Source of the DNA: Hericium rajendrae
Lineage: Eukaryota > Basidiomycota > Agaricomycetes > Russulales > Hericiaceae
NCBI GenBank assembly: GCA_033439255.1
Contig: CM065888.1
Coordinates: 496,001-560,000, forward strand
DNA: 64,000 bases
Direction: 5' to 3'
The notes below the pieces were generated by a model. That model did no database searches, was not told where the DNA came from, and saw only the letters and a program-made list of their open reading frames with translations. Made by a program: the position numbers and the translations under genes. Every line of letters starts with the position of its first letter. Within the stretch, counting starts at the first letter, position 1. This document shows, one piece after another, positions 13,043-34,249 of this stretch.

Positions 13043-16000
13043 ATGAAGGCCTTCTTGCGCCGTAAAACGTCAGAAGCGCAGCCGTCGCAGTCTACGCCAA
13101 GCTCACCCCGACCCGCGGAATCCACTGCGACACCTCTTTACTCGCGTTTTGCATCGGCAACAACGACCCCGGTGCGACCGGTTGTGTCGGGGCCAATGGC
13201 GCTTGCACCGCGTCCGAGGCAGGACACGAGCAAACCGGACACGAGCAGGCCGCGACCGCGCACGGCAAGCACTTCCGAGTCCGCGCAGGACCAGCCTGCA
13301 CCTGCTCAAATCCCGCGCAAGGGCTCGCCGATGAAGGCGCTCTCACCTGCCAGTGCGCGACATGCGCTATTGGCGCGAGAGCAGGACCCGTTCGCCAAGA
13401 TGCCTATAGCTATAGTGACGGAGAAGCCGGAAGAGAGAAGCTCTGGGCCTCCACCGGATGCCGGTGCAGGGTCGAACGCGCCTCGCATTCCCTCGTCCGT
13501 GCTCCCCGAGAGCAGCCTCCGCTTCTCGACACCGTTTTTCAATTCTCGTGCGTCATTTTCTGTCTTCGCGTGCGCGATGTTATGCTGAGGCGGAAAGAAG
13601 CTTCCCGACACGACAAACCGCTCCCTCCCGTCACGCCCCCCGAAGTCCAAGCCGGCCTGCCCGAGACTCCACTGAGACGATCCCGCAAGCTGAGCAGAAG
13701 CGATACCCAAATCCCGCCTACGTCCTCGCCATCACGACGTTCTCCGTCTACCTCATCTTCACCCCGCGGCCTGCCATCGGCCCCCTTCTCGCCGCCGTTC
13801 ATGTCATCGCCGCCCCCTCGAATTAGCGATCTTCCGCTGGCATCGCCGTTCGCGCCCTCACTGACGTTACCCCCAGAGGAGAAGCCTGGAAAGCGGGCGT
13901 CCTTCCTCGGGCTTTCGTCTTCCCCGTCGAAAACGCAACGGCTTACGGGGAGCGCGGGTGCCTTCTCGGTTACGACAGTCAATCACCCTGCGAAGGTACG
14001 TCGAAGACAGTTTTAGTTTGGGTTCTTTTTTTTCTTCCGACCTGCGGAGATGAAGAGGATGTCCGGAAGCTCTACTACTCAACACGCGTCGCCATAGGCG
14101 CACACGGAGAGTGTGTAGGCGAAGGATTGGCATGATGCCGCCTATCTTGTCTCTCCGCTTTCAATGTGCCTGATGCTTCTAGTTTTTGGCATTCGACTTG
14201 ATCGTCATTCATACTACCGTTGCCGAAATTGCATGTCATGCAACGATATCCCCCTGCATCGATGGTTTTTCCTCCGCGGATTTCAGATGGTGCAAGATCT
14301 GAGGGGGACAGCGTCATCCACTGCGTTCCGTTCATATTCGCACCGGTCACCAATTGTTTCCGGGGTGTGTGAATACCTTATTGTCCATGGGCGTCATACG
14401 CACTCTACTTTGCCATTGGATTCGCTTTTCTTCTTCCGTAACAATGGCCCAGATCTCTGACCGCTGGTCCTTCTTCATTCCAGGACACGCGCTTGCCCAG
14501 CGCCGCACAACGCCCACCGGCTAGGCAGAAGCAGGTAAGCTGTTCCCACGCAGCATATAACGGAATTCGCGCCCCCAACGTGTCCGCCATGTGTCAAAGT
14601 AGCATTTCGCTCACCTTTTTCGCGTCTATCTTTTCATCGACAGACCGTCGCCCTCAATTCCGAGCCTGCGCGCCGACATGAGCGCCAGCCCGACGGTCCT
14701 GCCGCGGTATATAGTCCCGCGGCCCCCGCCTCTCCTCCGGCTCCTTCTCCGATCCCACCTCCTTCATCTTCCCCGATTCCGCCCCCTCCTTTTAGTGGCT
14801 TCATTCCCTCCCAGCGCCAGCCCCCCGCCACCAGCCCTCCGCCCGCGGCATTCTCTGGAAAACAACCAGATCGCGAACGCAGGAAGCTGCGCAAGCACAA
14901 CTCGATGCTGAAACAAGAACGCCCCGAGCCGCCGCCGCAACAGACGTTCGATCGTGACGAACACGCACGTCATCAGCACTATCACCAGCATGCGGTGCTG
15001 CACAAAAACACGCGTGGGGATTCGCATGCGCCGATCCTCACACCGCCGCAGTCGTCAGACGGACACCCAGTGCCCACGCCCATATCCCCCACTATGCCCT
15101 CTATCATTCCCTCTACCATGTACCAGCAGGCGAGAAACCAAGGCCCTGTGCGAGGCAAGCCGTTAATTTTCGCGACGATGGGTGCGGACGTCAATGAGGT
15201 CGGTATGACGAATAGACAGCAGCAGCAGCAGCAGGCGCCGCCCCCAATACGCAGAGGCCCGCTCATCTTCGAGACGCAAGGCGCAGAAGAGCGGATGTCG
15301 GCGCAAGCTCCTCCAAGCGGCAACGGTCAGATGTCACCGGGGACGCCGGCAGGCTTATCACGGATGGAGATTCCGTCTGTCAGAGACGACATGGATGCAC
15401 ATGGCCAGACAGATATTGCGAGGGATCCGCGGGATGTCGATGCCAATCGTTCAGTCCCGCCGCCTGCTTCGTCGAACGGAAGGCAGATGGTGCCGGATCC
15501 CGTGCGGCCTTCGCTACAGCCGGTCGAATCTCCGCCCATGGCGGCTTTCCGAGCGCTGCCTGAGCCCCGCCCGCAGCCTGTCCAACCGCCTTCCCCGCTG
15601 TCGCCTGAGACGAACGCCCGAGTTCTGCCTGAACTCCGCTCGCAGCCCGTACAGCCGATCTCGCCGTCGTCGCCTCAAAAGGCGCCTCACGTTCTGCCTG
15701 AGTCCCACCTGCAGCCTATGCAGCCGGCCTCGCCTCTATCGCCTCAGACGCCGCAACGCGCGATGTCTGACGCCCGCCCGCGGCACAAGTCGCTTCCGCA
15801 CCAGCTGCACCACCAGCCGTTCCAGCAGTTCCACGCGAAGCCGCAGCCGCCGCTCCCCTCGACACCCGAGGATCGCGAGGATCGCGTCGCACCGAAGCGC
15901 AAGCATCGGCCCATCACGCCCGAGTCGCCCAAGACCCCGCTTGGCCCGCCCATCGAGCTGGAGGCGAAGGAGTTGTCTTCGCCCGCAGAGCACACTACGG

Positions 16001-17727
16001 AGCATGAGGATAGCTATGGGCCCTCGAGGCATAGTATGGCGCAGGAGCTGGACCCGGACGATTTCGAAGCCGTTGAGCAGCCCGACGCTGTGTCTGTATC
16101 AGCGCCATTATCATCCCTTCCTTCGAAGCATCCTACGCGCCCACCGACACCGCCTTCTCCCGAGGAATACTCCCGCGCCCGTGCCCGACGACGCGGCAAC
16201 GCCCTATCGAAGCCCCCGCCCGACGTCACGGAAGCCGCCAAGCCGAAGCCGCCCACATTCTACCCTCTCGCAGCGCACCTGCAAAACCCGGCCCTGCTCG
16301 GCCCCTTACTCGGCTACCTCACCTTCGCAGAGTGGCTCGCGCTCTGGAGCGCCAACAAGGCGCTGCGGCGCACGCTCGACGACGCGCGCGACCTGCGCGA
16401 GGCGGTCCTCGAGCGCTTCCTCGGCGTCGTCGGCTACGCGCGCTGGGCCGCGCGCGAGGAGGAGCCCGCGGTGCGTCTGACGCTCGGCCAGCTCGCCGCG
16501 TACATGCAGGGCGTGTCGCTCCCGCCGCACGCGTACGCGCAGCGCGCGCCCAGCCCCGAGCGCGCGCACGCGCTGCGCCGCGCGACGCGCGCGTACTCGC
16601 GCGTCGTGCTGCGGCTGCGCGCGCAGGCGGAGGCGGAGGAGCCCGCCGGCGCCGCGAAGCCGCGCGCCGCGGGCCCGCCGCCCGCGTGGGCGAACAATAA
16701 CAATTACAGCCAACGCTCGTTCTCGCGCGCGTCGAGCCGCGCGCCGTCGCCGACGGGCACGCTGTCGACGGCGGCGCACGGCGGCGCGCGGCGCTTCCAG
16801 AGCGCGCTGTTCCGCGTGCGGCGCGCGCCGCTGCTGCGCGTGTTCGTGCCGTCGCCCGAGGGCGACTGGCTGAGCGACACGAGCGTGCTCGAGTGCGAGG
16901 CGGAGCTGCGGCGCGCGGGCGTGCTGCCGCTGCTGCGGCCGGGCGACGTCGTGTGGGACACGGCGGTCGGGGACGAGGGGAATGCGGGGCGGATGGTGTG
17001 GGACGGGCGGTATCTCATCGTGCGTGGCTGTTCTTGTGTTGTGGGGCGTGGGCGCTGATGGGTTGCAGGATCTGGACTATACGTATTCGCAGACGGGCGA
17101 CGTGCCGGCGTACTTGCCGTCGCTGGCGTTCCCGCCGTCGTACTTCCACCGGGTCGTGCGGACCGCGGGCGAGCACAAGAACCCGATCGCGCACCTCGAC
17201 ATCAGCCCGTGGGCGGACGAGGTTGCGGCGAATCTGCAGCTGCTGCAAGACCGCGTGAAGACCGAGACGTGCGCCTCCCTCGCTTCTTGCGCTTTTCTTT
17301 CGCTGACGGGGTTGCTGTGCAGCCCGCAGGGGAACTACCACACCGTCGTCCGCTGGACGCACCGCTCGTCGTTCCAGATCGTGCGGCCGGGCTCGCGCCG
17401 CGCGCCGCTCATCGCGATCGTGATGCCGACGAAGGAGCGGCGCACGATCGATCCCGGCTGGGTCGGCACCGTCGTCGTCGAGGCCGAGGGCACGAACGAG
17501 GGTCTCGCGGATCTGCAGCGCCGGTGCGGCACGGCGTTTCCGCCTGCGGTCGGCGGCGGGCTTATGGCCGGGCGGAAGGGCGAGCGCGAGCGGAACGTGT
17601 GGCGCATTTTGAGGGAGCGGAGGTGAGTGCGTTCTGCTGCCTGCGTGTGCGTGGCTGATGTGTGGATAGTCGGCCTGGGGAGATATGGCTGCGTGCGGTG
17701 AGCTATAAGGAGCGGCTCATCGCATAG
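13043..17727 (+). CDS. Large disordered protein with folded C-terminal domain
   Basis: A long basidiomycete protein (roughly 1,100 aa) of unknown function. The N-terminal two thirds are Pro/Ser/Gln-rich and disordered: MKAFLRRKTSEAQPSQ, then many SP sites, a basic HNSMLKQERPEPPP patch, a run of six glutamines (about 15216-15233), two copies of a PLIFxTxGA motif, and three 23-residue tandem units (15553-15759). The last third is folded: a short helical F-box-like segment (LLGYLTFAEWLALWSANKAL), then LRRAGVLPLLRPGDVVWDTAV and, after introns near 17020-17069 and 17271-17327, LDYTYSQTGDVPAYLPSLAF, then SFQIVRP and PLIAIVMPTKERRTIDPGW. It ends SYKERLIA before the TAG. The long non-coding stretch 13996-14483 is treated as intron and may hide an exon. 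The F-box comparison is tentative; possibly a signalling or wall-stress scaffold, but I will not assign a function. Confidence 0.6.
15553..15759 (+). repeat. Three 69-nt tandem repeats coding 23-aa units
   Basis: Three in-frame units at 15553-15621, 15622-15690 and 15691-15759, each coding a variant of (A/V)LPExRxQPVQPxSPxSPQ plus four residues, diverged at the DNA level. They lie in the disordered region of the large protein and keep the frame exactly. Confidence 0.85.
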
Positions 17728-18425: not shown

Positions 18426-19480
18426 ATGGCGACGTTTGCCAATGCAACATTCAACACCGCACGGTATGCCGCTGCGCGCCCGACTTACCCGCGCCAGCTC
18501 TTCGACTTTATCTTCCGGTACCACGAGCGCAGTCGCGGGGCGCGTTGGGACACTGCTGTCGACCTGGGATGCGGGACAGGTACGTGCTAGCAGAGCATGT
18601 CAGAAGACATCTAATATTTATCCTTCTCGCCCCACTTTCTCGCCCGTAATTCTCACCGCACGTATGGAATGTATTTCGGGCGCACGCAGGCCAGGCGACC
18701 GTCGAGCTGACGCCCTTCACACACGTCATCGGCGTCGACCCCAGCGCATCCATGGTCTCCCTCGCACGCGAAACCGCCGCCTCCACACGCACCAGCACCA
18801 ACGCCCACACGACCTTCTCCTTCATCCAGTCCCCCGCCGAAGACCTCGCCTTCCTCCCCTCCGCCTCCGTCGACCTCCTCACCGCCGCCCAGGCCGCGCA
18901 CTGGTTCGACTGGCCCCGCTTCTGGCCCGAGGCCGCGCGCGTCCTGCGGCGCGGCGGCACCGCGGCACTCTGGGGCTACTCCGAGTTCCGCCTCCCGCGC
19001 CACCCCGCGCTGACGCCGCTCATCCACGCGTACGCGCAGGGCGCGGACCCCGCGGCGTCGCTCGGCCCGCACTGGCAGCAGCCCGGCCGGCGCATCCTCG
19101 ACGGCCACTTCCGCGACGTGCCGCGCGCGACGGACGTCCTCCCGGAGAAGTTTACGGATTGGGAACATGTGTTCTTTACGGGGGCGCATTACCCCGCGCT
19201 GCCGGCCGAGCAGACGCACCCGGTGATTTTGCGCAGGCGCATGCCGTGGCCCGCGCTCCTGGCGTACCTCCGCACCTTCAGCTCGCTGCACACGTTCCAC
19301 GAGCGCTACCCCGCGGACCGCACGCGTGCTGACGGCGACATTGCGCAGCGGTTCTACACTGCGCTGCGGGAGGGCGTGCGGCGCGACGGCGGCGACGTCG
19401 GGGCGGCGGAGGCACAAGGCGAGGAGGCGGAGGTCGAGGTGGAGTGGCCGATGGCGGTTATACTGGTGAAGAGGGCGTAG
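18426..19480 (+). CDS. SAM-dependent methyltransferase (class I, type 11)
   Basis: A cytosolic class I methyltransferase of the trans-aconitate methyltransferase (Tmt1)/Crg1-like group common in fungi. The start ATG at 18426 gives MATFANATFNTARYAAARPT, the usual opening of this group (F....Y...RP.YP..L). One intron (donor at about 18580, acceptor at about 18690) splits the SAM-binding motif I, which reads DLGCGTGQATVEL when joined. Motif II acidic loop: VIGVDPSASMVSLARET. A following SPAEDLAFLPSASVDLLTAA carries the post-II and IV region, then AAHWFDWPRFWPEAARVLRRGG. The C-terminal half (WRRM-like RRRMPWPALLAYLRTFSSL) is normal for the group. Substrate is probably a small carboxylate or lipid, but this is not shown by the sequence. 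Confidence 0.85.
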
Positions 19481-20912
19481 CGCGCTGTGTAGCTCTGGAT
19501 GGGGCGGTAGGTGCTTGATATGTTGTGATGAGATTGCTGTGTTTATGGTTCTGGCTCTGCAGGATGTATTGCATTCATTGCTTATTGTATAGCATGTCAA
19601 TACCAGGTTAATCTTGCTTGCTTGCTACCACGCGTGACCCAGACCATCTTCTTGCGTGCACCTTTCCGTCCTTCTAAGTGAGTTCTGCACACTCTGTTTG
19701 CTGAACGAGCGCGCCTCGGCTCTGGTTCCATGCCCGTGCGTGCATCTCTCAGTATGCACGGGTTTTCCGCGTATCTTTTTCTCCATACGCACGGCATACC
19801 TACGTACAGTAAGTCGTCCACGCAGCTCGCGCTCTAATTCCCGATAGCCCTCCACCAACACACAGCTTCCAACGCGCTGCGTCACAACCAGCCACCACAG
19901 CGCTGTCTCCCTGCAGGATGCATTCAGGGCCACCACGGCACAAGCCCCGCCGTTCGCCCGAACCCGAACGTCCGCCCCGCCGCGCGTGGACGCGTGCCAG
20001 ACGAGGCGCACAGAGACAGCGTCTTGCATAGTAGCGCACGGCCCGACGCCTGTTCGTCCCGCACGATCGCAGCGCGGACAGGTCGCGATTCACAGCTGTG
20101 CTATGGGCAGCACCCGTCGCACAACCCCGCCCAGGCGAGGGCAGCCACAACCCCGCCCATCCTACGTTCTTTCCGATCCAGGACGCCTTCGCGTGCGATT
20201 GCCTCCTCCGGTTCTGTCACCCAGTCCAGCAGCTCAGAACTACTTACACGTAGTCCGCGGCTGGAAGGGAAAGGAGGGGACGCGGAGAGGAAAGAAAGGA
20301 CGACAGATGCTTCGCGATGCCCCCGCCATCGAGGGAGACGCAAGTTCAGCCAGCGCCGCGGGTCTGATCGGCGACGCAAGGCCAATGATCACGGTGTACT
20401 GGGACATGGCGGGGTACGCATCTCGCGCAGCGCGCCCTGTCTGAGAAGTGGTAGGGATGTACGAAGTAGTGGGGTGCCACAGCAGGGGCTCCCGGTGAGG
20501 TGTTTATGTCCGTTCTGGCGCATGCATACTCTTGTGTTACACTTACATATGTTTGGTTCGTTGGAACGTCGACGTTCTTTTTCTTGAGAGTGATCATTCG
20601 CCTGTTCGTTCGTTTGCGAAGGAGGCTTTACGAGGCAAAGGACCTATCTATCTGCGCCTTTAGGCCTCTGCATCAGCGCGAAAGACACCAATATGGGACC
20701 ATCGCGCGCTAGCATCTGCAGCGCGCATTTAAGTCACAGCAAGCTGCAGATGGTCCCTCGCGGCTCAAAGGAACGAATGAAGACCGATATTAAATTGCAT
20801 GCAAAGGAACGGAAACACGAAACGCCAGTGTACAACAAGGCCCAAATAACTCTGCTCCGCCGCCCTGCGAAACAGCCTGCACCCGCGGGTGCCATGGCAC
20901 AGCGCGAGCTGC
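19481..20912. other. Intergenic region with possible degenerate repeat
   Basis: About 1.4 kb between convergent genes (methyltransferase + and sdhB -). Several overlapping frames of 100-200 codons exist on both strands, but all have arginine/serine-rich, non-conserved composition and I judge them chance. The part at about 20525-20620 resembles 37441-37540 (see repeat entry). Confidence 0.4.
20525..20620 (+). repeat. Possible dispersed repeat, copy 1
   Basis: T-rich segment whose centre (GTCGACGTTCTTTTTCTTGA) resembles GTCGACGCTCTTTGGCTTGA in the segment at 37441-37540. Similarity extends on both sides with small gaps, including TTCGTTCGTTT-like sequence downstream. It may be a fragment of an old mobile element. 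No terminal repeats or coding remnant were seen, and the match is by eye only. Confidence 0.3.
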
Positions 20913-22021
20913 TTACTCGGTGGCGAGCTCGAGCTTGATCTTCGCGATCGCTGCGGCGGGGTTCAGGCCCTTCGGGCATGTGCGCGCGCCTGGAGCGGAG
21001 AATAGATGAGTATAGGATGAGCGGAGAGCAAGGGGACACGAACAGTTGAAGATGGTGTGGCACCGGTAGAGAGATAGCTCGTTCTGGAGCTTCTCCTTCC
21101 GCTGCGCACCGTGTGCGTCCTGCATGACGTCATATAAGCCGCTGCCCAACACATTCCAAGCAAACGGAACGCACTCGTGAATCGGCGATCCACCGGTACG
21201 CCTGCATCAGCGTCGCGGGGCCCAGGTACTCGTCCTGGTTCCACCAGTAGCTGGGGCACGACGTCGAGCAGCACGCGCAGAGAATGCACTCGTACAGGCC
21301 ATCAAGCTTCTTGCGGTCCTCCTGCGACTGGAAGTACTCGCCGTGTTCCGGCGGGTTCGGGTTCTGCAGGTACGGCTCGATGGACTTGTATTGCTTGTAG
21401 AACTGCGTGAGGTCCGGCACGAGGTCCTTCACGACGTACACTGGCAGGGCTCGGGGTAAACCGTGGGTAGGCTGCGAAGTGCGGAGGAGACGTACTGTGC
21501 GGGAGGGGATAGATCTTGGTGTCTTTGGCCGCAGCTCGGTCTATTCTGCAGAGGCAGGCGAGCGTGTTCTGGCCGTTGATGTTCATGGCGCAGGAGCCGC
21601 AGATACCTTCTCTGCACGAGCGGCGGAAGGTAAGCGTGGGATCCATCTCGTTCTTGATCTTGATTAAGGCATCAAGAACCTGGCACGCAAAGATGAATAT
21701 ACGCTTGTATGAGCAACGCAGAACCAGCTATGACGACGACCGCGTACCATGGGACCGCACTCGTTCAGATTGATTTTGTACGCCTGCAGCTGGGGCTTCT
21801 TCTCCGGCTGATCAGGGTCCTACATCGCGACCAGAAATACAAAGCATAAGCACCCGCAGCAGCACAACGCGTAGAGGACATACCCAGCGGTAAATCTTGA
21901 ACTCCTTCACGAGCGCAGGTTTCTCGGTCGGAACCGCCTGGCGCCTGGTCGCAGACGACGCAAAGCCGCGCACCGCAGCGCCTCTGAAGGGACGTGTCGC
22001 GCAGCGTGCTACAAAGCTCAT
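20913..22021 (-). CDS. sdhB: Succinate dehydrogenase iron-sulfur subunit
   Basis: Mitochondrial complex II subunit carrying the [2Fe-2S], [4Fe-4S] and [3Fe-4S] clusters that pass electrons from succinate to ubiquinone. The start CAT at 22019-22021 gives [20 protein letters not shown], an Arg/Ala-rich mitochondrial presequence. Then [26 protein letters not shown] and [20 protein letters not shown] with LACLCRI ([2Fe-2S]), [39 protein letters not shown] ([4Fe-4S]) and [20 protein letters not shown] ([3Fe-4S] and quinone site), ending LELATE before TAA. The histidine in CHTIFNC, the position changed in carboxin-resistant fungi, is the wild-type His. About five short introns. Length and motifs are normal. 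Confidence 0.95.
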
Positions 22022-22413
22022 GGTGGATGTGGAGAAGGAGAGGAGGAGGTCGGGGTCGTCGGGAGGAAAGCTGGAGTTGATGCAGAGGTAGCTGTCGCGT
22101 GAATTCGGGAATGCCTCCCCGGCCCGTTCAAAGTCCGCCTCGCCTGTTCCCGCGCCAATCACAGGTCGAGCTTTGGTGAGATCTCAAGCCGCCCTCGTTA
22201 CGTCATCCCGCCCTTCATCTTCTTGTCGGGCGTCCCCGCCGACGCCTACAGCGACTCGCAGCGTGTTGCGTTCGTCGTCAAAGTCTGCTTCAAATTTTCG
22301 ATAGCTGTACACGACATTTGCTAGTTGTAGACACATATGTTACCAAATGGGCGCCTCACGAAGCGCGACTCATTTCGTACATCGCCTAGCCCAGAGCTGC
22401 CCAGAATCTCCTG
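22022..22413. other. sdhB promoter / 3' space of synthase partner gene
   Basis: About 390 bp between two minus-strand genes. It should contain the sdhB promoter and the transcript end of the ACP-reductase-AT gene. No further gene seen. Confidence 0.4.
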
Positions 22414-24983
22414 TCATACCACCGCAACTTCCGACCTCGGAGCGCCCTCACTCGCTGCATATTCCTCGGGGCCTTTGAGCGTAAGATCAGCCCACCCATA
22501 CTTGCCCACAATCTTCCGCACCATCGGTCCCGGCCCCACATCTACAACCTCGCACCCCGCAAACTGCGCGCGCAGCGTCTCCATGCACCCATAGAACCGC
22601 ACCGGCTCGCGCATATGCCTGAGCCAGTACTTGGCGCCGACGCTACGCGCCGGGAGCACGCCACCCGTGACGCCCGATACGAACGCGCACCGCGCGTCAG
22701 CCGCAGGAACGACCTCAGGGAGCAGCGGCCGCAGCACGCGCACGGCGCCGTCCATCGCGCGGCAGTGGAACGGCAGACCCGTCGCCACCCGCACGCACTT
22801 CACGCCCGCCTCCTGCAGCCGTTCCTGCGCCTGTGCGACCGCCGCCGTGCTCCCACCCAACACGACGTGCGCCGGGCCCGCGTAGATCGCGACGTCCGCC
22901 GCGGGGTGCGCGAGCGCCGCGAGCTGCGCGCGCACGTGCTGCGGCGGCGCGAACACGTTCAGCATGGCGCCGCCGGCGCCGGCAGCGTGCACCGCGGCCG
23001 CGCGCGCGGCGACCAGCTCGGCGGCGCGCGGCTCTGTGAGGATGCCCGCGACGACTGCGGCGGCGAACTCGCCGAAGCTGTAGCCTGCGACGGCGGCGGG
23101 CGCGATGCCGGCGCGGAGCAGGCGGCGGGATGTCGCGAGCTGGTGCGCGAGGGTCTGGAGCTGGAGGTCGATTGCGGAGTGTAGGGCGGGGTCGTGCTTG
23201 TCGCCGAGGCTTGCGAGGATGAGGGACGCGTGGGTGTGTAGTCGGGCGAGGAGCGTCTTCATCTCGTCGTCGTCGGTGTCGGAAGGCACCCGCTCGGACC
23301 ACGGCCCAAAGATGAAGACATAGTGTTTGCTCCCTGCAGGCACGACCGAGGACGGAGAAGACAGCCCGAGACTTGAAACGGTAACGTCCGATGGAAGTGT
23401 ATCAGGCGTGGGCAGCGTCTCCGGGGACGACGCCGCCGACGCGCCAGCCGCCTTGAAAGCACTCATAACACGCTGCATCAAGAACGCAGCGAACGCGCGG
23501 TCGATGGCCGGGCACGCCGCCAGCGCCGCGCTGCGCGCCGTCGCCCTCGACACGTCGAGCGAGCGGAACGCCGCCGGCGACGCGTGGTCCGCGCGCGACC
23601 GCTTGAAGTACGGCAGCAGGCGCGCGACGGGCAGCCCCGCGGCCGCGCGCTCCACCAGCGCGACGTACTCCACGAACGGCACGAGCCGCGGCGCGTCGCA
23701 CCCCGCGGCGTGCGCCGCGTACGCGCAGACGTCGGCCCACGGCGTAATGCGCGGGTTCGCGAGGTTAAACACGTCGACGTCGTCCCGCGCGCCGGCGCCA
23801 TCGAGCGCGAGCTCGCACAGCGCGCGCGCACAGACGTCCGCCGGGATCCACGACACGGCGGGCATCTCGCGCGGCATGGCGCGCAGCGCTGGGAGCGACG
23901 CGAGCAGCATCGGCGCCATCTCGTTCGTCGACCAGCACCCGGCAACCGTGTCCCCGCACAGCTGCCCGACGCGGACGATGCGCAATGCGAACGCGCCGCG
24001 GGCCGCGGCGTGCAGGCGGTAGAGTACGTGCTCCGCGACGAGTTTCGCCTGCGCGTAGCCCTGCCATCCGAGTGTAAGTGCAATTAGCTCGGCGGCGCAT
24101 GCGGTGGGCGCACCTGGTTGAGCGCGTATGTTGCGCGCGGCTCCAGCGGCCGCTCGGGCACGGGCTCGTCGGGCGCGCCGAATGCCGTACTGATGCTGCT
24201 CGTGAACCACAGCGCCGCGCCGCGCGTGCTGGCCGCGCACAGCTGCGCAAGGCGGCGCGCGGCGAGGATGTCGCCCGCGAAGCCCGCGAGCGGGACGTTG
24301 AAGTCGAGCCGCCACGCGCAGTGCAGCACGACGGCCACCATGTCCGCGAGCATCTTATACTCGGCCGGCGTGCAGCCGAGGAAGTCATCCGCGAGCGAGG
24401 TGGTTGAGAGCAGCGTGAGGGCGCCGGTTTGGAGCGCGGGGTCGAGCGGGGTACTGTCAAGTGCGCGCTGCGCGAAGGCGGAGTGCAGGCGCGGGAGGGG
24501 GTCGCCGCGGACGAGGCAGACGACGGAGAGGGAGGGGTAGGATGAGAGAAGGTGCGAGAGGATGTGCGAGCCGAGCGAGCCCGTCGCGCCTGTCAGAAGC
24601 ACCATGGTTGGCGATGAATCCGGCTGCGCATCTTTCCGCTCGCGCTGCGGCCCGACGCTCTCGAAGGGCGCGCTGAAGCGCTCGATCAGCGCGTCCACTT
24701 CGGCTTGTGGGTCAGCGGCGGCGTGGGCCTGCAGCTTCTGCGCCAGGAAGGCGACGATGCCCGCGGGCGTGAGGGCCTGGTAGAGGTCCTCGGACTCGAC
24801 GGGCTGGCCGCAGGCTTTGGCGAGGCGCCAGGCGAGCTCGGTGATGTTGAGGGAGTTGGCGCCGATGTCGAAGATGTTGGTGGTGAGTGAGACGTCGGAG
24901 GGCGGGATGCCGAGGACGGTGCTGATTGTGTCTGAGATTTCGGGGATGGAGGGGGATTTCGAGGTATCGATTCTGGGCAACAT
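22414..24983 (-). CDS. Carrier - thioester reductase - acyltransferase protein
   Basis: A three-domain biosynthetic protein (838 aa in my two-exon model; intron 24061-24113). Residues 1-80: a phosphopantetheine carrier domain, core TNIFDIGANSLNITELAWRL with the attachment serine at about 44 (GANSL, where GxDSL is usual). Residues about 125-420: a thioester reductase / Male-sterility type NAD(P)-binding domain, VLLTGATGSLGSH (131-140), FTSSISTAFG, and GYAQAKLVAEHVL giving Tyr292-x3-Lys296 after splicing. Residues about 530-800: a FabD-like acyltransferase with nucleophile Ser618 in AVAGYSFGEFAAAVVAG and catalytic His722 in TGLPFHCRAMDG, ending GPGPMVRKI. It is transcribed away from the adenylation-KS gene, 1.78 kb distant. 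It probably takes a chain from the partner, loads extender units and releases the product as an aldehyde or alcohol; that is inference. The AT placed after a reductase is unusual. Confidence 0.85.
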
Positions 24984-26761
24984 GGCGTACTCGCTGTGGA
25001 TGAGGAGAGGAATGAACTACCTGTACACATCAAAGGCATCGCAGAAATCCTTGATGGCACCGTTATCTTCACATAGATGCCCGAGGTGCCGACGCACAGG
25101 GTCACCGACTGAAGTCGAGGGCTATCACATTAACCTCGAGATCTCACACGAGAGCATTTGTGACCGAGGAACATTCGGGAAAGAGCAAAGCACGAAAAGC
25201 ACCGCGCTTTCGACCCAGTCGGCAAAGAAGTGACCAGGCAGGGCTGGTCCCATCTCTCGCACGATGATGAACTGTTTATGCGGGGAATTAATGGGAGAAG
25301 ACGTGGGGAAGAACTGGTAGCAGGGTCCTACAAGGCGGTAACGGAAGAGCAGGGCTACATCACCTGGTGTGGCAGGGGAGAGTGCGGGGTTTGACGTTCA
25401 TACCAGCGTGCTCTGTCCTTGTGCTGCGATTGGCGCGATTTTCACAGAGTGGGTCTACGACTCCCATTGAATGGAGGAAAGCAATAAAACTGATGCATGA
25501 TGTTGCATGGTGCGTCGGAGTCGAAGAACATAATGTCGGTGGTGACGGGGTCGGCGGGCCGCCTCTTCCATTTAAATTAGCGCCCGTCGGGCTCGTCGCG
25601 TTCATCCCAAACTTGCTTTTCGACCTCAATGATGGTGACCATCTTTTGTCGACCTGTGGGAGCTTGTTTCAGATCGGACTCTCGCGCTGGCTACGGAGTG
25701 ACGCAAGGCCAGGCAGCATACTTACGCTGGTATCAACATGTTTTGTATTCTTGTTTTAAATCCATATGTACAGGTCGCTCACACTCGACAGCGACCGAGT
25801 CTTCGAAGACGTGGTGGAGCCAAGACACAGCCAGTCAATGTGCCTCGAGAACGGGTGCAATGGCAGTATCTATTCAGTTTGTTTCTCACCTACGTCAGGT
25901 ATAACGGTAGATATGATTCAGTTGCTTCAAACTTTGCAGATTGCATTCCTCGGAACACCGAAGATCAACGTGTGGTGATCTTCTCACAAGGTCAACCGAC
26001 TAGTTTTCCCATTTTTCACCGCCCATTTTGTCCTATCCCTCTCACCAAGGATGTTCCCAGCCGAGTCGTTTCCACGAGGCAAGTCAGAATTTTGTGGTAG
26101 GCCTTCAACCCGAACCTGTGATTCGTGAAGTACGGCCGACTGCCTCTGCCTGATCGAGCTTGGTGCGTTGCATACTTTCTGCTATGTCCAGGATACATAT
26201 CCGGTCTTATATTCCGGGACTGTCTAGGAATATTCAGTTCATCATTGCGACAAACACGTTGAACGTGCGTTCGGACGGAGCCGTTCCTCATCGAACTATT
26301 TCGAGGTCTGCAACCGTGTTGTAACATTCGCTGCTGTCTTGGCGTATCACATTCTTCACGAAGTTCCCAAGGCATCTCCCGCATCTCACCAATATCGCAC
26401 ACTGTCCAAACTGGATATCTTTCCACTGGCCAGCATGCTCACCAACGGTTTCCGCGGAGGTGTCAAAGTGCACCATTGTTAATGCAGATTCATTTCTCCC
26501 CCTCCGATCCGGGATTCACACTCCAATGTCCCTAGAGTCATGTCGATGTCGTCTGCGAGGCCCATTCCCTTTCTCACGAAGGTTTAGGCTATTCAGTCAA
26601 CGCTTCACTCTAGCTCTCAGAGATATCCCAGCTATCAGGGCTTCGGCTCTCAGGAAGTCTCGTGGCTTCATGTCAACGGAGCAATCTACAGATAAGGACA
26701 GAGTTCTTAACTCTGTATCTGACCAATCTGGCTCCAAGCTGCCGCTCGATTGACCGACAAG
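24984..26761. promoter_or_regulatory. Divergent promoter region of the two synthase genes
   Basis: About 1.78 kb between the head-to-head starts at 24983 (-) and 26762 (+); both promoters must lie here. I see no complete gene. A short minus-strand reading at 25580-25632 (MVTIIEVEKQVWDERDEPDG, then stop) follows a plausible acceptor (CCCACAG), but it has no recognised relative; it may be a tiny gene or nothing. No clear operator could be identified by eye. Confidence 0.5.
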
Positions 26762-29700
26762 ATGACTTTCACCATGGACTCTATCATACCCTCCCAGCAG
26801 ACGGTCCTCGATATCTTGGATCATTGGGTACAAGCAACCCCCGACGCTGATTTTCTATCCGTCTCTGCCGATGCAACCCTATCATACAAGTCCGCCCAGC
26901 ATCTCGTCGACCAGTTGATCTCGCGACGTTTGTATGAACTGTGTCCCGGACTTCATGACCGGCCCCCAGCGTTACCTCGCATAGCCGTCATATCGCGCAA
27001 CAGCCCTCTTCTACCGCTCACATATCTGTCGCTTTGGAGGCTCTCGGCAGTATGTATCCCGTTCAGTCACAACGCGGACCCATCGCTCTGGGTGCCTATG
27101 GCTGCTCATGCCAGAATCGACATGTTCCTTGTCTCTGCGTCGCTGTACCCGACGTTGACATCGACATATGCTTCCGTTGGGGCTCAAAAGCCTCGCGCCG
27201 TAATATTGGAGAGTTTAGTCCCTGGTCTAGCCTTCCAGCCCCATGCACCTACCTCCAGCGACATCATCTCAGCGTGTAATCTTTGGCTTGCCACGAGGGA
27301 AAGCTTAGACCTTGGGCCCCTCTCACTGGAGCGGCCGCATTCGAATACCCATGCAGCGACTATGTTCACGAGTTCGGCAGTCGACGCGTCTGGCCTTAAG
27401 AGTGTCCCATATACGCATGCGATGCTCCTGCAAGCGGCGAAGCGAATGCTATCGGGCATGGGAGGAGACGAGTATCTGCGCGAGCCGAAGCGCCACCTGG
27501 GATGGCTGCCCCTCGGACATGCATTTGAGCTTAACGCAGGTCTCCTGTTCGTTTAACAGACGTCTGCATTTATTCGCGTGCTGATGATAATGTCCATCGT
27601 ACACAGGAGCAATGTCATGGGCACAGGCGGCACCTACGTCTTCTTCGATCCCGACGTCAGCTCTCCTGGTCAATCTGCCGACCTGCCCTTGCCCCACCTC
27701 CTCATGTCTGCCCTCGCCTACCACCAACCGATCCACAGCATGGCAGCGGTCCCAGCGATCATGGCCAGCATCGTTGACAACATGACTCCCGATCAGCTCG
27801 ACCTCCTTCGGGCATTGCATTCGCTGACCGTTGGCGGTGCGACGGGATCTACGGCTCTTTTTCACTGGGCACGAGACAAGGGTTTGCGATACTATGACAT
27901 GGTCGGTATGACTGAAGCGGCAGGACCTATTTGTGCACGGAGTGCGCGCAGCACGATCGACGGCATGACTATTTTCAACGTAGGCCTCATGGGCGTGCTT
28001 GTGAAAGATGACGAGGGGGATGAGTATGGCGAGCTGGTCTTGATCGGAAAGGTATGCTGTAGTGCGTGGTCCTATCTTTGCTGTTGCTGACCTACGGCTA
28101 GAATCTCCCTCGCACCTATGAATTTCGTTCCGGGAAAACCTTCTCGTACAATGAAATGACTGGCGTGTCGATATATAGGACTGGCGACTTGTACACGCCC
28201 GGACCTGCTTTTGTTGGAGAGATCCTCATGGCAAACGATCCTTTGCCCGAGTTTAACGAGCGAGCACCACCATTGTCCGGTGCGTCACTTGGAAACATCC
28301 ATTCTGTACTTTCTAATACGTCATTGTAAGACATTTATTTCTTTGGCCGGGTCGACGATATCCTAGCGTTATCATCTGGTATTAAAATCAATGCCGCCGA
28401 CGCAGAGCACCTCTTGAACTCGCAGCCCGAAATCTATCAGTCTGCAATTATCCTGAACAAAACGGGAGACGCGCTGGTCGCTCTTATCCAGCCCGGTCCA
28501 TCTGCGTCTCAAGCAACAATCACCGACGTCGTTCTACGCTTGAACAAGGCGCTTCCATTCGAGAAGAAAATTCAAAGGCACAATATCACATTTGTCGAAT
28601 CTCTACCCATGACGAGTAAGGCGACGCTACATAGAAAGAAGCTGAAGTACATTCTTCATCAAGCTGGCGGACAGTGGCCATCCGTTCTTCCACTAACCCC
28701 AGAACAGCATTCGCCATTAGGCAGCGGTGACCTCGTACCTTCCAATCTATCGTCCTTGCCAGAGATCCCGTCCGACTTCCGTCAGCGCATGGAGAATCTG
28801 GTCACTGATGTTCTTGCTGTGCCTTTGGAGGAGGTACAGGACCCTCGATTCTCTCTCCTGGGCGTGCATATATCCTCTTTGGCCTCCATTCGTCTAGCTT
28901 CTGCTATACAATGCGCATTCGGTCGCCAGCTCAAGAGGTCAGACCTCTTCGCTGCTAGAACTATAGAGGACCTGTGCCGTCTGACCTTCACAGACGCGAC
29001 AAATTCATCTCCGCCCGATCCGCCCTCTGCATCGCCTGTTCCACCAAGAGCGGTGACGAAGCTAGAGTACAGCACACCGAGCACCAGCCTCGTGATATCT
29101 GGTGCCGCGTGCCGGTTCCCGAACGGGATCGACAACCTCGACGATTACTGGACGGCACTCCTCTGTCCGCAGAGCTACGTGGCGCATGTAGCAGGGCCCC
29201 CTCCTCCCTCGCGCTGGGACGCGGCCTCGGCGGGCACCACCCTTCCGATGGGCTGGCTAGATGATGCATCTCTAGACAATATCGCATCCTTCTCGGCTTT
29301 CTTTTCACTTCCTCAGCACGAGGTTGTCGAGATGCCGCCGAACATCCGTTTGTGCATGCAGATGGGCTATCGGGCTTTGGAAGACGCGGGGATCGCGCCT
29401 AGATCCCTATACGGGAAACCTTGGGGGGTGTTTACTTCTGTCAATGGTTCCGGGTGGGGCGAGCGCCGCTTCAGCGAGATGGATCTGGAAGGTACGTTTG
29501 CGAGCCAAACGTCGTTTCATTATTGAGAGAACGTCTTTCCAGATTTCGGCCGATCCCTTGCGGTAATCACTGACGACAATGCTGCTGGCCGCCTTGCTTA
29601 CTTCCTAAATCTGACTGGGCCTGCTGTTGAAATCAAAACAGCATGCTCTAGCAGCGCTGTAGCCATCCACCAGGGTAAGTGCAACTCGACTGCCCTTGAT

Positions 29701-31720
29701 AAATCAACACCTTACGATTTGCGGACTTCTCAGCCTGTCTGTCGATCAAGAACGGCGATTGCGACGGGGCAATAGTCATAGCATCCGCGACTCAGTTCAG
29801 CGCCGCAGGCTCGATCTTCCGTTCAAAGGCCGGTATCGCATCGAAGACCGGGCGATGCGCGACCTTTTCACAGGACGCGAACGGATTTCTCCCTAGCGAG
29901 GGTGCCGCGGCGATCGTCATTCAACGGAAAGATGATGCGCGTTGCCAGTTTTATGCTGAAATTCGTGGGACCGCAGTCGGGCAGGATGGGCGATCTCCGA
30001 ATTTCTTTGCGCCGAACGCGAGTGCGCAAGCTAGAGTTCTGCAGAAGGCGCTCCAGAACGCGTCGTGCCATTCGGACGATATTTCCTACTTAGAAGGTGG
30101 GGCGATGCTTTGATACGTCAGGCTGATCGCTCACTTACGCTTGTATTTGCAGCGCATGGGACAGGAACACCTGTTGGAGATGCGATTGAAGTGTCTGCGC
30201 TCAACAAAACTTTTGGCGGTCAGAGGACAATGCCTCTCATCGTTGGCGCAGCAAAAGCGGTCATCGGCCACACCGAAGAATGTGCTGGCCTTGCAGGCAT
30301 GTGTACTCTGGTTGGTTTCTTTGGAGATTTTGTCTGATATTCCCAACGCACAGGTATCTTGAAGGCGATCCTGTGTTTCAAGCATAATATCATACCACCT
30401 CAACCTCATCTTGGGCGAATTAACCCCGAACTTGATCTTCAACCATCACGGATCGTTATCCCTCGCAAAGCCACAGCCTTCCCCCCTTCTGGAAAGCCCC
30501 GCATCATCGGTGTATCCTCATTTGGTCTGTCTGGTACCCTTAGCCATATCGTGCTTCAGGAGCCAGAACAAATCCAAGCGCCCGCAGAATCAAGCGACTC
30601 CGGACCCAGTATCTTCACGATCTCATCCCATTCCGAAGCAAGTTTCGCATTGCTCTTAGATCAGTACTACGAGTATATCCTCTCACCCGATGCCATGGAT
30701 ACACATCTAGTCGGCATATGCAGGACGTCGCAGCTTGGACGCGACCATTTCACGTTCCGGAGAGCATGGGCCGTTACGTCCTGGAGCGATCTCCATACGT
30801 CACTAGTGTCTGCACTCACCAATCCCACTCCAATCCGGGCGAAGCGTAGGCCGAAAGTCGCCCTGTACTTCACACTGCCGTGTGGCCAAACTGCCCAGCT
30901 GCCCCATCCCATCGATCACCCAGTCTACTCTCAAGTGCTGAAAGCCTGTAGCGCAGCAGGCTGTAGCGAACCGTTCATCCCATTTGCCCACCAACTAGCA
31001 CTATCGAAGACTCTGCAGTCCTTAGGATGCGTCGTCAACGCCGTAGGCGGAGAAGGTGTCGCCGAATACGTCGCCGCAGCATGGGCGGGCGTCTTCGACT
31101 TCACCACCCTCTTCTCCCTTCTCTCCTTTTTAGAGCCATTCGAGGGCGTCTCCCGCGTCGTCAGCTGCCCACGCCAGACCCTCGACGAGCAGCTTATGTC
31201 CTACGGCCCCGACGAAATCCGCGTCGTCGCACAATCCGGTGCCAACGCAACCTGCCTCGCAGGCTCCCCCGACGCGCTGGCGACTCTGCAGACATCCTTG
31301 GCACCAGAGGCCAGCTGGACTGACTGCCCGCTGCTGAACCGCTCAGCGCCGCAGGACTGGCCTCTCCGCCCGCAGCCCACCGACCCCGCGTCCTGCATCG
31401 TCTCGAGCCATATCGGCAGCGTGCTGCCGCCCGAGGTCGCCGCGAGCAAGAGCTACTGGCTTGGGCTGCCGCAGAGGGAGTGGGACGCCGGCGAGGCGGT
31501 CGGCGCGTTGGCGGCGCAGAGCGACGTCGTGGTTGTGCTGGGCGCGTCGCCCTTGGTCGAGGCGCTCGCGGATGCGGGGAAGGCTGTGCAATACGACGGG
31601 GACTGGCTCTCAGTGGTTGCGAGGCTTTATGAGGTTGGGTGCGAGGTGGATTGGGGTGCGATTGGTAGGGAGGGGCCGATGGCGCATTTACCTGTTTATT
31701 GCTGGGATCGCGATGTTTAA
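26762..31720 (+). CDS. Hybrid synthase: adenylation - carrier - ketosynthase - inactive AT
   Basis: Eight exons (26762-27546, 27607-28051, 28102-28279, 28331-29491, 29543-29674, 29734-30096, 30153-30296, 30354-31720) join in frame to 1,524 aa. Residues 1-570: ANL adenylation domain, with a degenerate A3 loop (about 201-220, [18 protein letters not shown]), [19 protein letters not shown] (435), [18 protein letters not shown] and the A10 lysine at 566. About 615-685: carrier with Ser652 ([10 protein letters not shown]). About 715-1110: ketosynthase, with Cys891 (KTACSSSAV), His1023 ([12 protein letters not shown]) and His1061 ([10 protein letters not shown]), all present. About 1190-1500: AT-like region, but GGEGVAEY replaces GHSxGE and the AT histidine motif is absent. 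The A domain probably activates a carboxylic starter for condensation by the KS. The ATG at 26774 is an alternative start. No KR, DH, ER or terminal release domain is present. Confidence 0.88.
30297..30353 (+). other. Probable GC-AG intron in the ketosynthase region
   Basis: Frame continuity (GLA|GILKAIL) requires removal of 57 nt beginning GCATGT after CTTGCAG and ending CACAG. No GT donor nearby gives an open frame to the next exon. All other introns of this gene have GT-AG borders. Confidence 0.65.
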
Positions 31721-32151
31721 ATGTTGCGTTGGTGCTTGGCACGGTGTAATTCGGTGGCGTCGGGAATGGGTTCTAAGTATATGTTCTTTTGTGCGCAGTT
31801 GAAACCGATTCAACCATATATGTTCCAGTGCTGGACGATCGACATGGGGACAGGGTGCTGCACCCTTCCACCCTTGAACTTGACGATGCTTGGACCTGCG
31901 CAATATATCAGGATTCCCGGTGTCTCTCGGGATTCACTTCGCTGATATGACGTCTTTGCAGCGTTCCAGAGTCTCAAGTTTCCCAGCAGTACTATGCAGG
32001 CGTTAAGCTTACGGCCGGCGTAGGTGTTGAATCATCCCAACGATGTAATTTCCATCTACGGGCATCTGAGGACAAGGTGTGGACCCATTGATATTGTACA
32101 CTGAGAACACTGAGCGCGAGAAGAGCAGAAGTATAAAATGGCTGCAGGCGG
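31721..32151. other. Short intergenic region
   Basis: About 430 bp after the synthase stop and before the old yellow enzyme remnant. Presumed terminator and promoter sequence; no gene seen. Confidence 0.4.
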
Positions 32152-33412
32152 TTGGATACGCGCCATCAACATCCCAGATCCCCTCTCTTCCAACAGCTTC
32201 ACACAACGTCCACAGCGAATATATTTCAGCCCTACCAGCTCGGCGCCATCACCCTGCAGCACCGCGTCGTTATGGCGCCGCTCACGCGCTTCCGCACGCA
32301 TGACGACCACGTCCACAGCGACATCGCCGTCGAGCACTACCACCAGCGCGCGCGCGTCCCCATCACGCTTCTCATCACCGAGGGCACCTTCATCGCCGCG
32401 AAAGCAGGCCGCATGGACAACGTCCCCGGCATCTGGTCCGCCGCGCAGATCGCCGCATAGGGGAAGGTGCGTGCAGGGTGTGGGTATGGAGTTCAACTGA
32501 GCTGGATATATTGTATATCGTGGATGCGGTGGATGCGGAAGGCTCGTTCGTCTACCTGCAACTCTGAGCGCTCGGGCGCGGTGCGAGCCTGAGGTGCTGC
32601 AGGAGGAGGACCCGTCCTTCGCGCTCGTCTCCGCGTCGGGCATCGCAGTCACCGGCCAAGCGCGCCCTCATGCGCTCCGCATGGTGAAGATCAGGGAGTA
32701 CGTCCAGCTGTATGCGACGGCCGCACGAAACGCAGTATACGAGGCGGGATTCGATGGTGTCGAGATCCATGCTGCGAATGGGTTGCTGCCGGACCAGCTT
32801 GTACAGGACGTGTCGAATCGGAGGACGGATGAATATGGCGGTTCGATAGAGAATAGGGCGAGGTTTCCGCTGGAGATGCTGGATGCCGTGACGAAGGCGG
32901 TGGGCCAAAATCGCGTCGAGATCCGGATGAGTCCGTGGAACAAGCATGCAGGTGCGTATCTGTCCCCATGAGAGGCCTTACACTCACTCGAGGTGCGGTG
33001 GGACAGACATGCAGATGAAGGATCCAAGGCCAATGTTCGCGTATCTCGTGACGCAGATCCATGATAGGTTCTCTGACCTGGCATACAGTACCTGAACATT
33101 ATAGAGCCGCGGACGTGGGGCGGGACGGACCTGCCGCCGGAGGAGGACGACTCGAATGACTTCATTCGCGAGATTTGGGGCCCCAGGCCGCTGCTTGTTG
33201 CCGGGGGCTATACCCGAGACGAGGCTCTCGCAGCTGCGGAAGATGCGTCTCAAACATGAGTAGCAAATTGATTGCGGGAGGTCTTCCGCTAGCCACTGAT
33301 ACTAGCCCGATCTTTCCTTGAGGCTGAAGAAGAACTTGACGCTGACGCCATATAACCGCGACATCTTATACACCCCAAAGAGTGTAGTTGGCTACACCGA
33401 CTACACTTTTTC
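32152..33412 (+). pseudogene. Old yellow enzyme (NADH:flavin oxidoreductase) pseudogene
   Basis: FMN-dependent ene-reductase of the OYE family, broken. The N-terminus is recognisable (NIFQPYQLGAITLQHRVVMA, PLTRFRTHDDHVHS, LLITEGTFIAAKAGRMDNVP), as is the middle (ASGIAVTGQARPHALRM, GFDGVEIHAANGLLPDQ with SNRRTDEYGGSIENRARF) and the C-terminal end (LKKNLTLTPYNRDILYTPKS from 33324, then GYTDYTF). Breaks seen: a TAG at 32458-32460 where the family has Trp (QIAAW), a TGA at 32565-32567 again at a Trp position (QLWALGR), a one-base loss close to 32588 (SPEV), a stop after EDASQT at about 33257, and loss or decay of about 45 residues between there and 33324, the region of the conserved GR.FI.NPDL phosphate-binding segment. 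The middle keeps plausible introns. No functional product is expected. It probably once tailored a product of the adjacent synthase, which is inference from position only. Confidence 0.85.
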
Positions 33413-34249
33413 AGTGAGGTTTAGAACAAGGGTCATAGAAACCGAGAGTAAGTAATTTCATGTCCTTGGTCGTTCCTCATTGTACGTGCTGGAAGGATTT
33501 TTAAGAGTGTTTACCAAACTCGTGAGTAGTAATAGTTGAGCCAGTTCTGAGATCCATTGGCAACGTTGATAGGCAGCCTGATGATGAGCGCCTTAACTGC
33601 CGCTGCGCCAGATCCTATGTCGTGCGTTTGACGTTGGTACTGACCTAAATACAAGTTGCCGTCAGCGAGAGTAGGGGGCATAAGAATGTCGCAACGTTTT
33701 ATGAATTGCATAAGACAAAGGCTAAACTTGGATATGAAACCCGTCCGGCGCCCCGGACCACCGAGTCAGTGGGGTTGCCTTGCGTCATCCTCGGGCACAA
33801 CTTGTCTATCTCTTTGAAAGGCCTGGTGGTGAGCAGAACATCTGCACATACAGATTATTAGAAATGATGAAGAAAACGACGACGATAGCGGCAGGGACGA
33901 GAGTCGAAAAAAGTCTAGAACGGGTGCACGGGATGACAGGATAGACAAGAAAGGCAAGCCGAAATTTGGGCGGACTTTGAAAGGGAAGTATTAGGCATTG
34001 GGCAGTGTCGCTGCTAGGCCCTCCTCTCCTTCCTCTACCCACCATCCATCCCTCCATTTCTCCTCGTCTACTATGTCTCGCTAACTCGCCTTCGGGTTTA
34101 GCTTTCGCTCCCGCCCGGGCAATGTTTCTTTCTTCCTCCCTGTCTTTCCCACTTCATCATTCAGGCGTTGTATTGTACTGCACTCCATTCACGTCGTCCG
34201 AGTCGCTGTGATCTGTCGTTGTTTCTACCGTCTAGCTGACTGAGCTGAG
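33413..34249. other. Intergenic region
   Basis: About 840 bp between the pseudogene and the C2H2 gene. Pyrimidine-rich toward its right end (about 34010-34240), as is common in fungal promoters. I see no gene. Confidence 0.4.

What the first reader, a model, noticed from the sequence alone, without database searches (positions are those of the whole stretch)
22414..31720. Two divergent genes look like one split polyketide synthase with acyltransferase supplied in trans
Seen: the plus-strand protein has adenylation, carrier and ketosynthase domains with an intact Cys-His-His triad, and no working AT or release domain. The minus-strand protein has carrier, thioester reductase (TGATGSLG, YxxxK) and AT with intact Ser618/His722. 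What each lacks, the other has, and they sit head to head 1.78 kb apart. Known: KS-based chain extension needs an AT to load extender units, and terminal reductases release thioesters as aldehydes or alcohols. Inference: the two act as subunits of one synthase that activates a carboxylic starter, extends it and releases it reductively. Fungal iterative PKSs normally carry the AT in cis, so a trans-AT two-subunit arrangement would be noteworthy. I cannot tell from here whether it has been described.
Basis: partly seen in the sequence, partly recalled or inferred. Interest (0 to 1): 0.85.

Follow-up and report, generated by a model that had tools for sequence, protein, structure and literature searches.

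The report
Fungal polyketide synthase in two genes
A fungus seems to make one small-molecule-building enzyme from two neighbouring genes: the usual internal loading domain has died in one protein, and a working-looking loading domain, with a carrier and a release domain, sits in the other.

Summary
My spliced models give a plus protein (26762-31720, 1524 aa) A-ACP-KS with a Cys891-His1023-His1061 triad, and a minus protein (24983-22414, 838 aa) ACP-reductase-AT, head to head, 1778 bp apart. New here: the plus protein carries a full-length but dead AT. It lost four residues (Ser, Arg, His, Gln) that are the same in 63 of 63 bacterial KS-linked ATs (Ser by selection); the minus AT keeps all four. 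AT searches hit three loci in this genome: the pair, a non-reducing PKS and a presumed fatty acid synthase. The pair is best read as one split synthase. Two corrections. It is not a trans-AT PKS in the bacterial sense: the AT shares its chain with an ACP and the reductase, so the step made in trans is KS meeting ACP2. And the order looks known: Inonotus IgPKS3 is printed as KS-ACP-TE-AT in one protein, and A-ACP-KS-AT-ACP is the hispidin-synthase plan. The A-domain P-loop and ACP1 motif are non-canonical, so the starter step is uncertain and decay is possible. No fungal relative could be compared by sequence. New variant of a known kind; function inferred.

The parts
26762..31720 (+). Plus gene, 8 exons (26762-27546, 27607-28051, 28102-28279, 28331-29491, 29543-29674, 29734-30096, 30153-30296, 30354-31720), 1524 aa: A-ACP1-KS-psiAT
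26819..28644 (+). Adenylation (AMP-binding) domain; A10 Lys566 kept, P-loop non-canonical
28789..28983 (+). ACP1; Ser652 kept in an atypical HISSL motif
29089..30412 (+). Ketosynthase, C891-H1023-H1061
30422..30694 (+). KS C-terminal extension / KS-AT linker region (PF16197)
30854..31645 (+). psiAT: degenerate AT. Ser position is G1304, catalytic His position is D1404; conserved Arg and Gln positions are Leu and Glu (boundaries approximate)
31646..31717 (+). Post-AT linker motif (LPVYCWDRD) ending the protein (boundary approximate)
   Evidence: the phmmer stretch here was not significant
22414..24983 (-). Minus gene, exons 24983-24114 and 24060-22414, 838 aa: ACP2-R-AT
24744..24938 (-). ACP2, GANS44L
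23467..24602 (-). Thioester reductase (TGATGSLG, Y292, K296); best solved match 8aep
22498..23325 (-). AT with Q590, S618, R643, H722; no KS-AT or post-AT linker
24984..26761 (.). 1778-bp divergent intergenic region; no domain remnant found

Best explanation
The two genes encode two subunits of one unimodular polyketide synthase related in plan to A-ACP-KS-AT-ACP NRPS-PKS hybrids (hispidin-synthase plan), with a terminal reductase added and the live AT at the C terminus. Proposed cycle: A activates a carboxylic acid, probably an aryl or acyl acid, and loads ACP1; KS takes it; the minus-strand AT loads malonyl onto ACP2 of its own chain; KS condenses with malonyl-ACP2 across the two proteins; R reduces the chain off ACP2 as an aldehyde or alcohol. 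No KR, DH or ER was found on either protein, so a beta-keto aldehyde or alcohol (or its aldol or enol product) is expected. The psiAT is kept as a structural brace of the KS. Shown by sequence: domain content, lost and kept catalytic residues, gene arrangement, AT inventory. Inferred: subunit interaction, malonyl specificity, starter class, product, role of psiAT, and origin by fission of one gene.
For: Complementary domains with one KS and one live-looking AT between the pair. psiAT aligns with bacterial KS-linked ATs over about 332 residues (best 1.9e-12) and with the partner AT (28.6% over 217 aa, E 1.9e-5, or 2.8e-4 with the roles swapped), but has G/L/D/E where 63 of 63 bacterial rows and the partner AT have S/R/H/Q. 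psiAT models as the tail of a KS-AT didomain (pLDDT 86.1; TMq 0.73 to CurL). The minus AT models as an AT/MCAT fold (pLDDT 76.9; TMt 0.75 to 3im8) and carries neither the KS-AT nor the post-AT linker. In one NCBIfam profile (NF045894, both scores below its cut-off) the best stretch of the plus protein matches positions 3-542 and that of the minus protein 576-811. Genome: AT hits at the pair, the NR-PKS and a presumed FAS locus; KS hits at the same three. The same order is printed as one protein, KS-ACP-TE-AT, for I. glomeratus and as similar in I. hispidus and I. obliquus; A-ACP-KS-AT-ACP is the HispS plan.
Against: The A P-loop and ACP1 motif are non-canonical, so the starter branch may be dead or differently fed. 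The minus AT lacks GQGSQ. GC3 differs strongly (0.62 plus, 0.87 minus); GC3 varies widely among genes here, so this neither supports nor refutes. No scar or remnant of a split was found. IgPKS3 is printed without A-ACP, its TE is not stated to be a reductase, and no sequence was compared. No expression data. An SDHB-like gene lies on one side, so cluster context is weak.
Confidence: 0.6

Rival explanations
1. Same pair, but the A-ACP1 loading module is vestigial: KS takes acyl groups from CoA esters or from another carrier, and the working unit is KS plus ACP2-R-AT.
For: Altered P-loop and HISSL motif. The six PDB sequences matched at E up to 0.1 have their best stretch in the small C-terminal part of A (from about 471 to 576); N-part stretches, where shown, are below threshold. 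IgPKS3 is printed without an A-ACP.
Against: AMP-binding (1.1e-20) and PP-binding (1.5e-7) both score over their Pfam cut-offs; Lys566 and Ser652 are kept.
Confidence: 0.2
2. The plus gene is decaying and the pair no longer makes anything; the minus protein may still act as a stand-alone ACP-R-AT.
For: Three non-canonical domains in the plus protein: P-loop, ACP1, AT.
Against: Open over 8 exons and 1524 codons, intact KS triad; psiAT model is well ordered (pLDDT 86.1), though it leans on an alignment of live ATs. Without relatives no selection test was possible.
Confidence: 0.15
3. TAS1-like enzyme: KS does not extend but cyclises, and the neighbour is unrelated.
For: A-ACP-KS without a live AT resembles C-A-PCP-KS of TAS1.
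Against: TAS1 KS has Cys-His-Asn, this KS has Cys-His-His; no C domain found; a KS-AT tail is present.
Confidence: 0.05

Closest known systems
Hispidin synthase (HispS) and orthologues, A-ACP-KS-AT-(KR, DH)-ACP
   Same: N-terminal A-ACP-KS order, single module, KS followed by an AT-shaped domain
   Different: Here the cis AT is dead and the second ACP is on another protein with a reductase and a live-looking AT; no DH or KR. HispS itself was not available for sequence comparison
Inonotus IgPKS3, KS-ACP-TE-AT (PMC12634532, section 3.9 seen)
   Same: KS, then ACP, then a release domain, then C-terminal AT, with no AT listed after KS
   Different: One protein, A-ACP not listed, release domain called TE; no sequence available to me
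Bacterial and algal trans-AT PKSs
   Same: KS without live cis AT, KS-AT linker kept, AT elsewhere without linkers (bacterial features partly recalled)
   Different: AT is fused to ACP2-R rather than free-standing; unimodular
SwnK (swainsonine), recalled as A-T-KS-AT-KR-T-R
   Same: NRPS-PKS hybrid ending in a reductase
   Different: One protein, KR present, AT in cis (architecture recalled, not from a call)
Adenylate-forming reductases (A-T-R)
   Same: T-R pair; an A-T-R ORF of this genome matches residues 79-485 at 31%
   Different: Minus protein has no A domain and has a C-terminal AT

Membership tests
HispS-type NRPS-PKS hybrid | N-terminal A-ACP-KS | tested here: met
   but P-loop and ACP1 motif atypical
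HispS-type NRPS-PKS hybrid | Active AT after KS in the same protein | tested here: not met
   four of four conserved residues lost
HispS-type NRPS-PKS hybrid | C-terminal ACP in the same protein | tested here: not met
   plus protein ends at the post-AT linker; no ACP found in it by Pfam and no significant tblastn hit downstream
trans-AT PKS | KS module without live cis AT | tested here: met
trans-AT PKS | Discrete, free-standing AT | tested here: not met
   AT lacks KS-AT and post-AT linkers but is fused to ACP2-R
trans-AT PKS | AT acts on an ACP of another polypeptide | not testable with these tools
   needs biochemistry; the only other ACP of the pair is ACP1
SwnK-type | KR between AT and terminal T-R in one protein (recalled) | tested here: not met
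   no KR hit in either protein, two genes
TAS1-type | KS triad Cys-His-Asn | tested here: not met
   Cys891-His1023-His1061
A-T-R adenylate-forming reductase | A, T and R in one chain | tested here: not met
   minus protein has no A domain
IgPKS3-like KS-ACP-TE-AT | Sequence homology to IgPKS3 | not testable with these tools
   no fungal sequence collection; architecture only

The most novel reading that the evidence does not exclude
A fungal type I PKS that works as two obligatory polypeptides with its AT displaced from the KS: a unimodular, AT-displaced synthase of the intermediate kind for which the algal PKS study found little convincing evidence (passage seen), caught with the dead AT still in place.
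Probability: 0.4. Interest if true: 0.75.

Novelty: new variant of a known kind. Interest (0 to 1): 0.55.

Why it matters
Fungal type I PKSs are usually described as single chains with the AT in cis. A natural split into a condensing half and an extender/release half, with a fossil AT still attached to the KS, would show how AT displacement can begin in a single-module enzyme and would offer a compact two-part system for engineering. It also predicts reductive release of an unreduced beta-keto chain, which one co-expression experiment could check. If it is only a gene fission of the KS-ACP-TE-AT plan printed for Inonotus, it still points to an uncharacterised family with a relocated AT.

Tried and rejected
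GC3 continuity as evidence of a former joint: plus codons 1401-1500 reach 0.88 and the minus gene starts at 0.88, but other genes here swing as widely and the last codons of the plus gene fall to 0.48, so I dropped it. (My notebook entry gives the 0.88 stretch as the last 124 codons; 1401-1500 is right.) Scar or remnant search: tblastn of the intergenic and both downstream stretches gave 124 rows at E up to 1, none better than 0.018; the repeat finder on 20000-34000 gave 0 direct families and 3 inverted pairs, each with both arms inside one gene. The sigma-70/terminator scan does not suit a fungus and is not used. Viral-contig scans matched 3 and 8 pattern stretches, none confirmed as a relative. 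Tree distances of the ATs were long and no grouping is claimed. The A domain had no blastp hit at E up to 0.01 among ORFs of 80 bacterial loci. Literature: in the listings of searches I saw no fungal trans-AT PKS; several listings were cut (5 of 14,255, 20 of 74, 15 of 46, 15 of 22) and only open-licence PMC papers are held, so this is not proof of absence. Papers opened, 12: PMC12634532 (passages and section 36), PMC9606254 (passages and section 6), PMC9866795 (part 1 of 4 of the text, and passages); passages only of PMC11186289, PMC8582187, PMC6158276, PMC4661987, PMC6540522, PMC11856377, PMC9787987, PMC4640141, PMC10923510.
Full report
What is there. I rebuilt both genes from the sequence. 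The plus gene spans 26762-31720 with eight exons and gives 1524 residues without a stop; the seven introns are 50-60 bp, six GT-AG and one GC-AG. The minus gene spans 24983-22414 with two exons and 838 residues (the first minus model, was out of frame). They are divergent, with 1778 bp between start codons. Pfam gives A-ACP-KS for the plus protein and ACP-thioester reductase-AT for the minus protein.

The dead AT. Pfam finds no AT in the plus protein, yet residues from about 1190 to the end align with ATs of bacterial KS-AT proteins over about 332 residues (best E 1.9e-12), weakly with the CurL AT by phmmer (E 0.044), and with the partner AT (28.6% over 217 residues, E 1.9e-5, or 2.8e-4 with the roles swapped). 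I aligned it with 63 of the 80 bacterial loci (17 dropped: no GHSxGE within 480 residues of the KS, or too short). Four positions are Ser, Arg, His and Gln in 63 of 63 rows (the Ser by selection on GHSxGE). The minus AT and the genome's NR-PKS AT keep all four; the plus protein has Gly, Leu, Asp and Glu. The plus protein keeps the KS-AT linker and ends at the post-AT linker motif; the minus AT has neither. Modelled with 40 of the 63 bacterial rows, the tail folds as the tail of a KS-AT didomain (pLDDT 86.1; TM 0.73 to CurL, normalised by the model). The minus AT, modelled with 39 rows, gives pLDDT 76.9, with low confidence at both ends, and matches PKS ATs first and stand-alone malonyltransferases next (TM 0.75 to 3im8, normalised by the target). 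Both alignments consist of ATs, so these matches are not independent of them.

Other soft spots. The A-domain P-loop is [12 protein letters not shown] against HTSGSTGLPK in this genome's A-T-R enzyme, and ACP1 has HISSL in place of GMDSL; Lys566 and Ser652 remain. The minus AT has FGPWSER in place of GQGSQ. These lower confidence in the starter branch and slightly in the AT.

Genome context. In the genome of the window (46.8 Mb, 19 contigs) Pfam finds KS at three loci (the pair; an NR-PKS on C3; a locus on C16 that I take for the fatty acid synthase) and AT at the same three. These are exon-by-exon searches and lower bounds; no separate mitochondrial KS or AT gene appeared, so some may be missed. 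Neither protein has a full paralogue. A gene placed at random falls within 1778 bp of the KS gene with a fraction of about 8e-5. Neighbours are an OYE-like flavin oxidoreductase shortly after the plus gene and a methyltransferase at 18.7 kb, with an SDHB-like gene next to the minus gene (read by eye).

How it most likely works. A loads an acid on ACP1; KS takes it; AT loads malonyl on ACP2 of its own chain; KS and ACP2 meet across the two proteins; R releases an aldehyde or alcohol. Malonyl is inferred from the LPFH motif and the retained Arg (the motif rule is recalled). An aryl or acyl starter is inferred because the best solved A match is a 4-coumarate-CoA ligase (weak, E 3.3e-5) and HispS uses caffeic acid. 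No KR, DH or ER was found.

Relation to the literature. Hispidin synthases are A-ACP-KS-AT-ACP, and orthologues add DH and KR (PMC9866795); three A-T-KS-AT-DH-KR-ACP enzymes are printed for Cyathus olla (PMC11186289). The FnsA paper counts 502 fungal NRPS-PKS hybrids, five with known function at that time (PMC9606254). An Inonotus genome paper lists IgPKS3 as KS-ACP-TE-AT, similar in I. hispidus and I. obliquus (PMC12634532). That order equals KS of the plus gene followed by the whole minus gene, if the printed TE is a reductase, which the paper does not say. So the AT at the C terminus may be a family trait, and what is special here is the split. An algal study describes AT displacement in eukaryotes and notes little convincing evidence for iterative trans-AT PKSs (PMC4661987, passages).

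Origin. A single inversion of the promoter plus the A-ACP-KS-psiAT part of a one-chain gene would give exactly this head-to-head pair. This is a hypothesis; I found no scar, and GC3 was not diagnostic.

Verdict. 'AT in trans' should be restated as KS and extension ACP in trans, with the AT in cis to that ACP. It is a new variant of a known kind, function untested.

Noticed in passing
window 32501-32968 (+), first exon by eye from about 32.1 kb: OYE-like NADH:flavin oxidoreductase exon (PF00724, 4.9e-36) shortly after the plus gene; a possible tailoring ene-reductase. Gene ends not modelled.
   Followed up: partly
window 18650-19477 (+): Class I methyltransferase (PF08241, 7.8e-14), another possible tailoring gene.
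   Followed up: no
window 21130-22183 (-): Exons that read like the succinate dehydrogenase iron-sulphur subunit, directly downstream of the minus gene (by eye, no family search made).
   Followed up: no
G000 C3:2011218-2029251: A non-reducing PKS with an A-T-R adenylate-forming reductase about 8.5 kb away on the other strand; an NR-PKS next to an NRPS-like gene is also described in Phlebia radiata (passages).
   Followed up: partly
window 14539-17055 (+): A long ORF without a Pfam hit whose GC3 climbs to 0.97-0.99 at its 3' end; strong GC3 swings within ORFs are common here.
   Followed up: no
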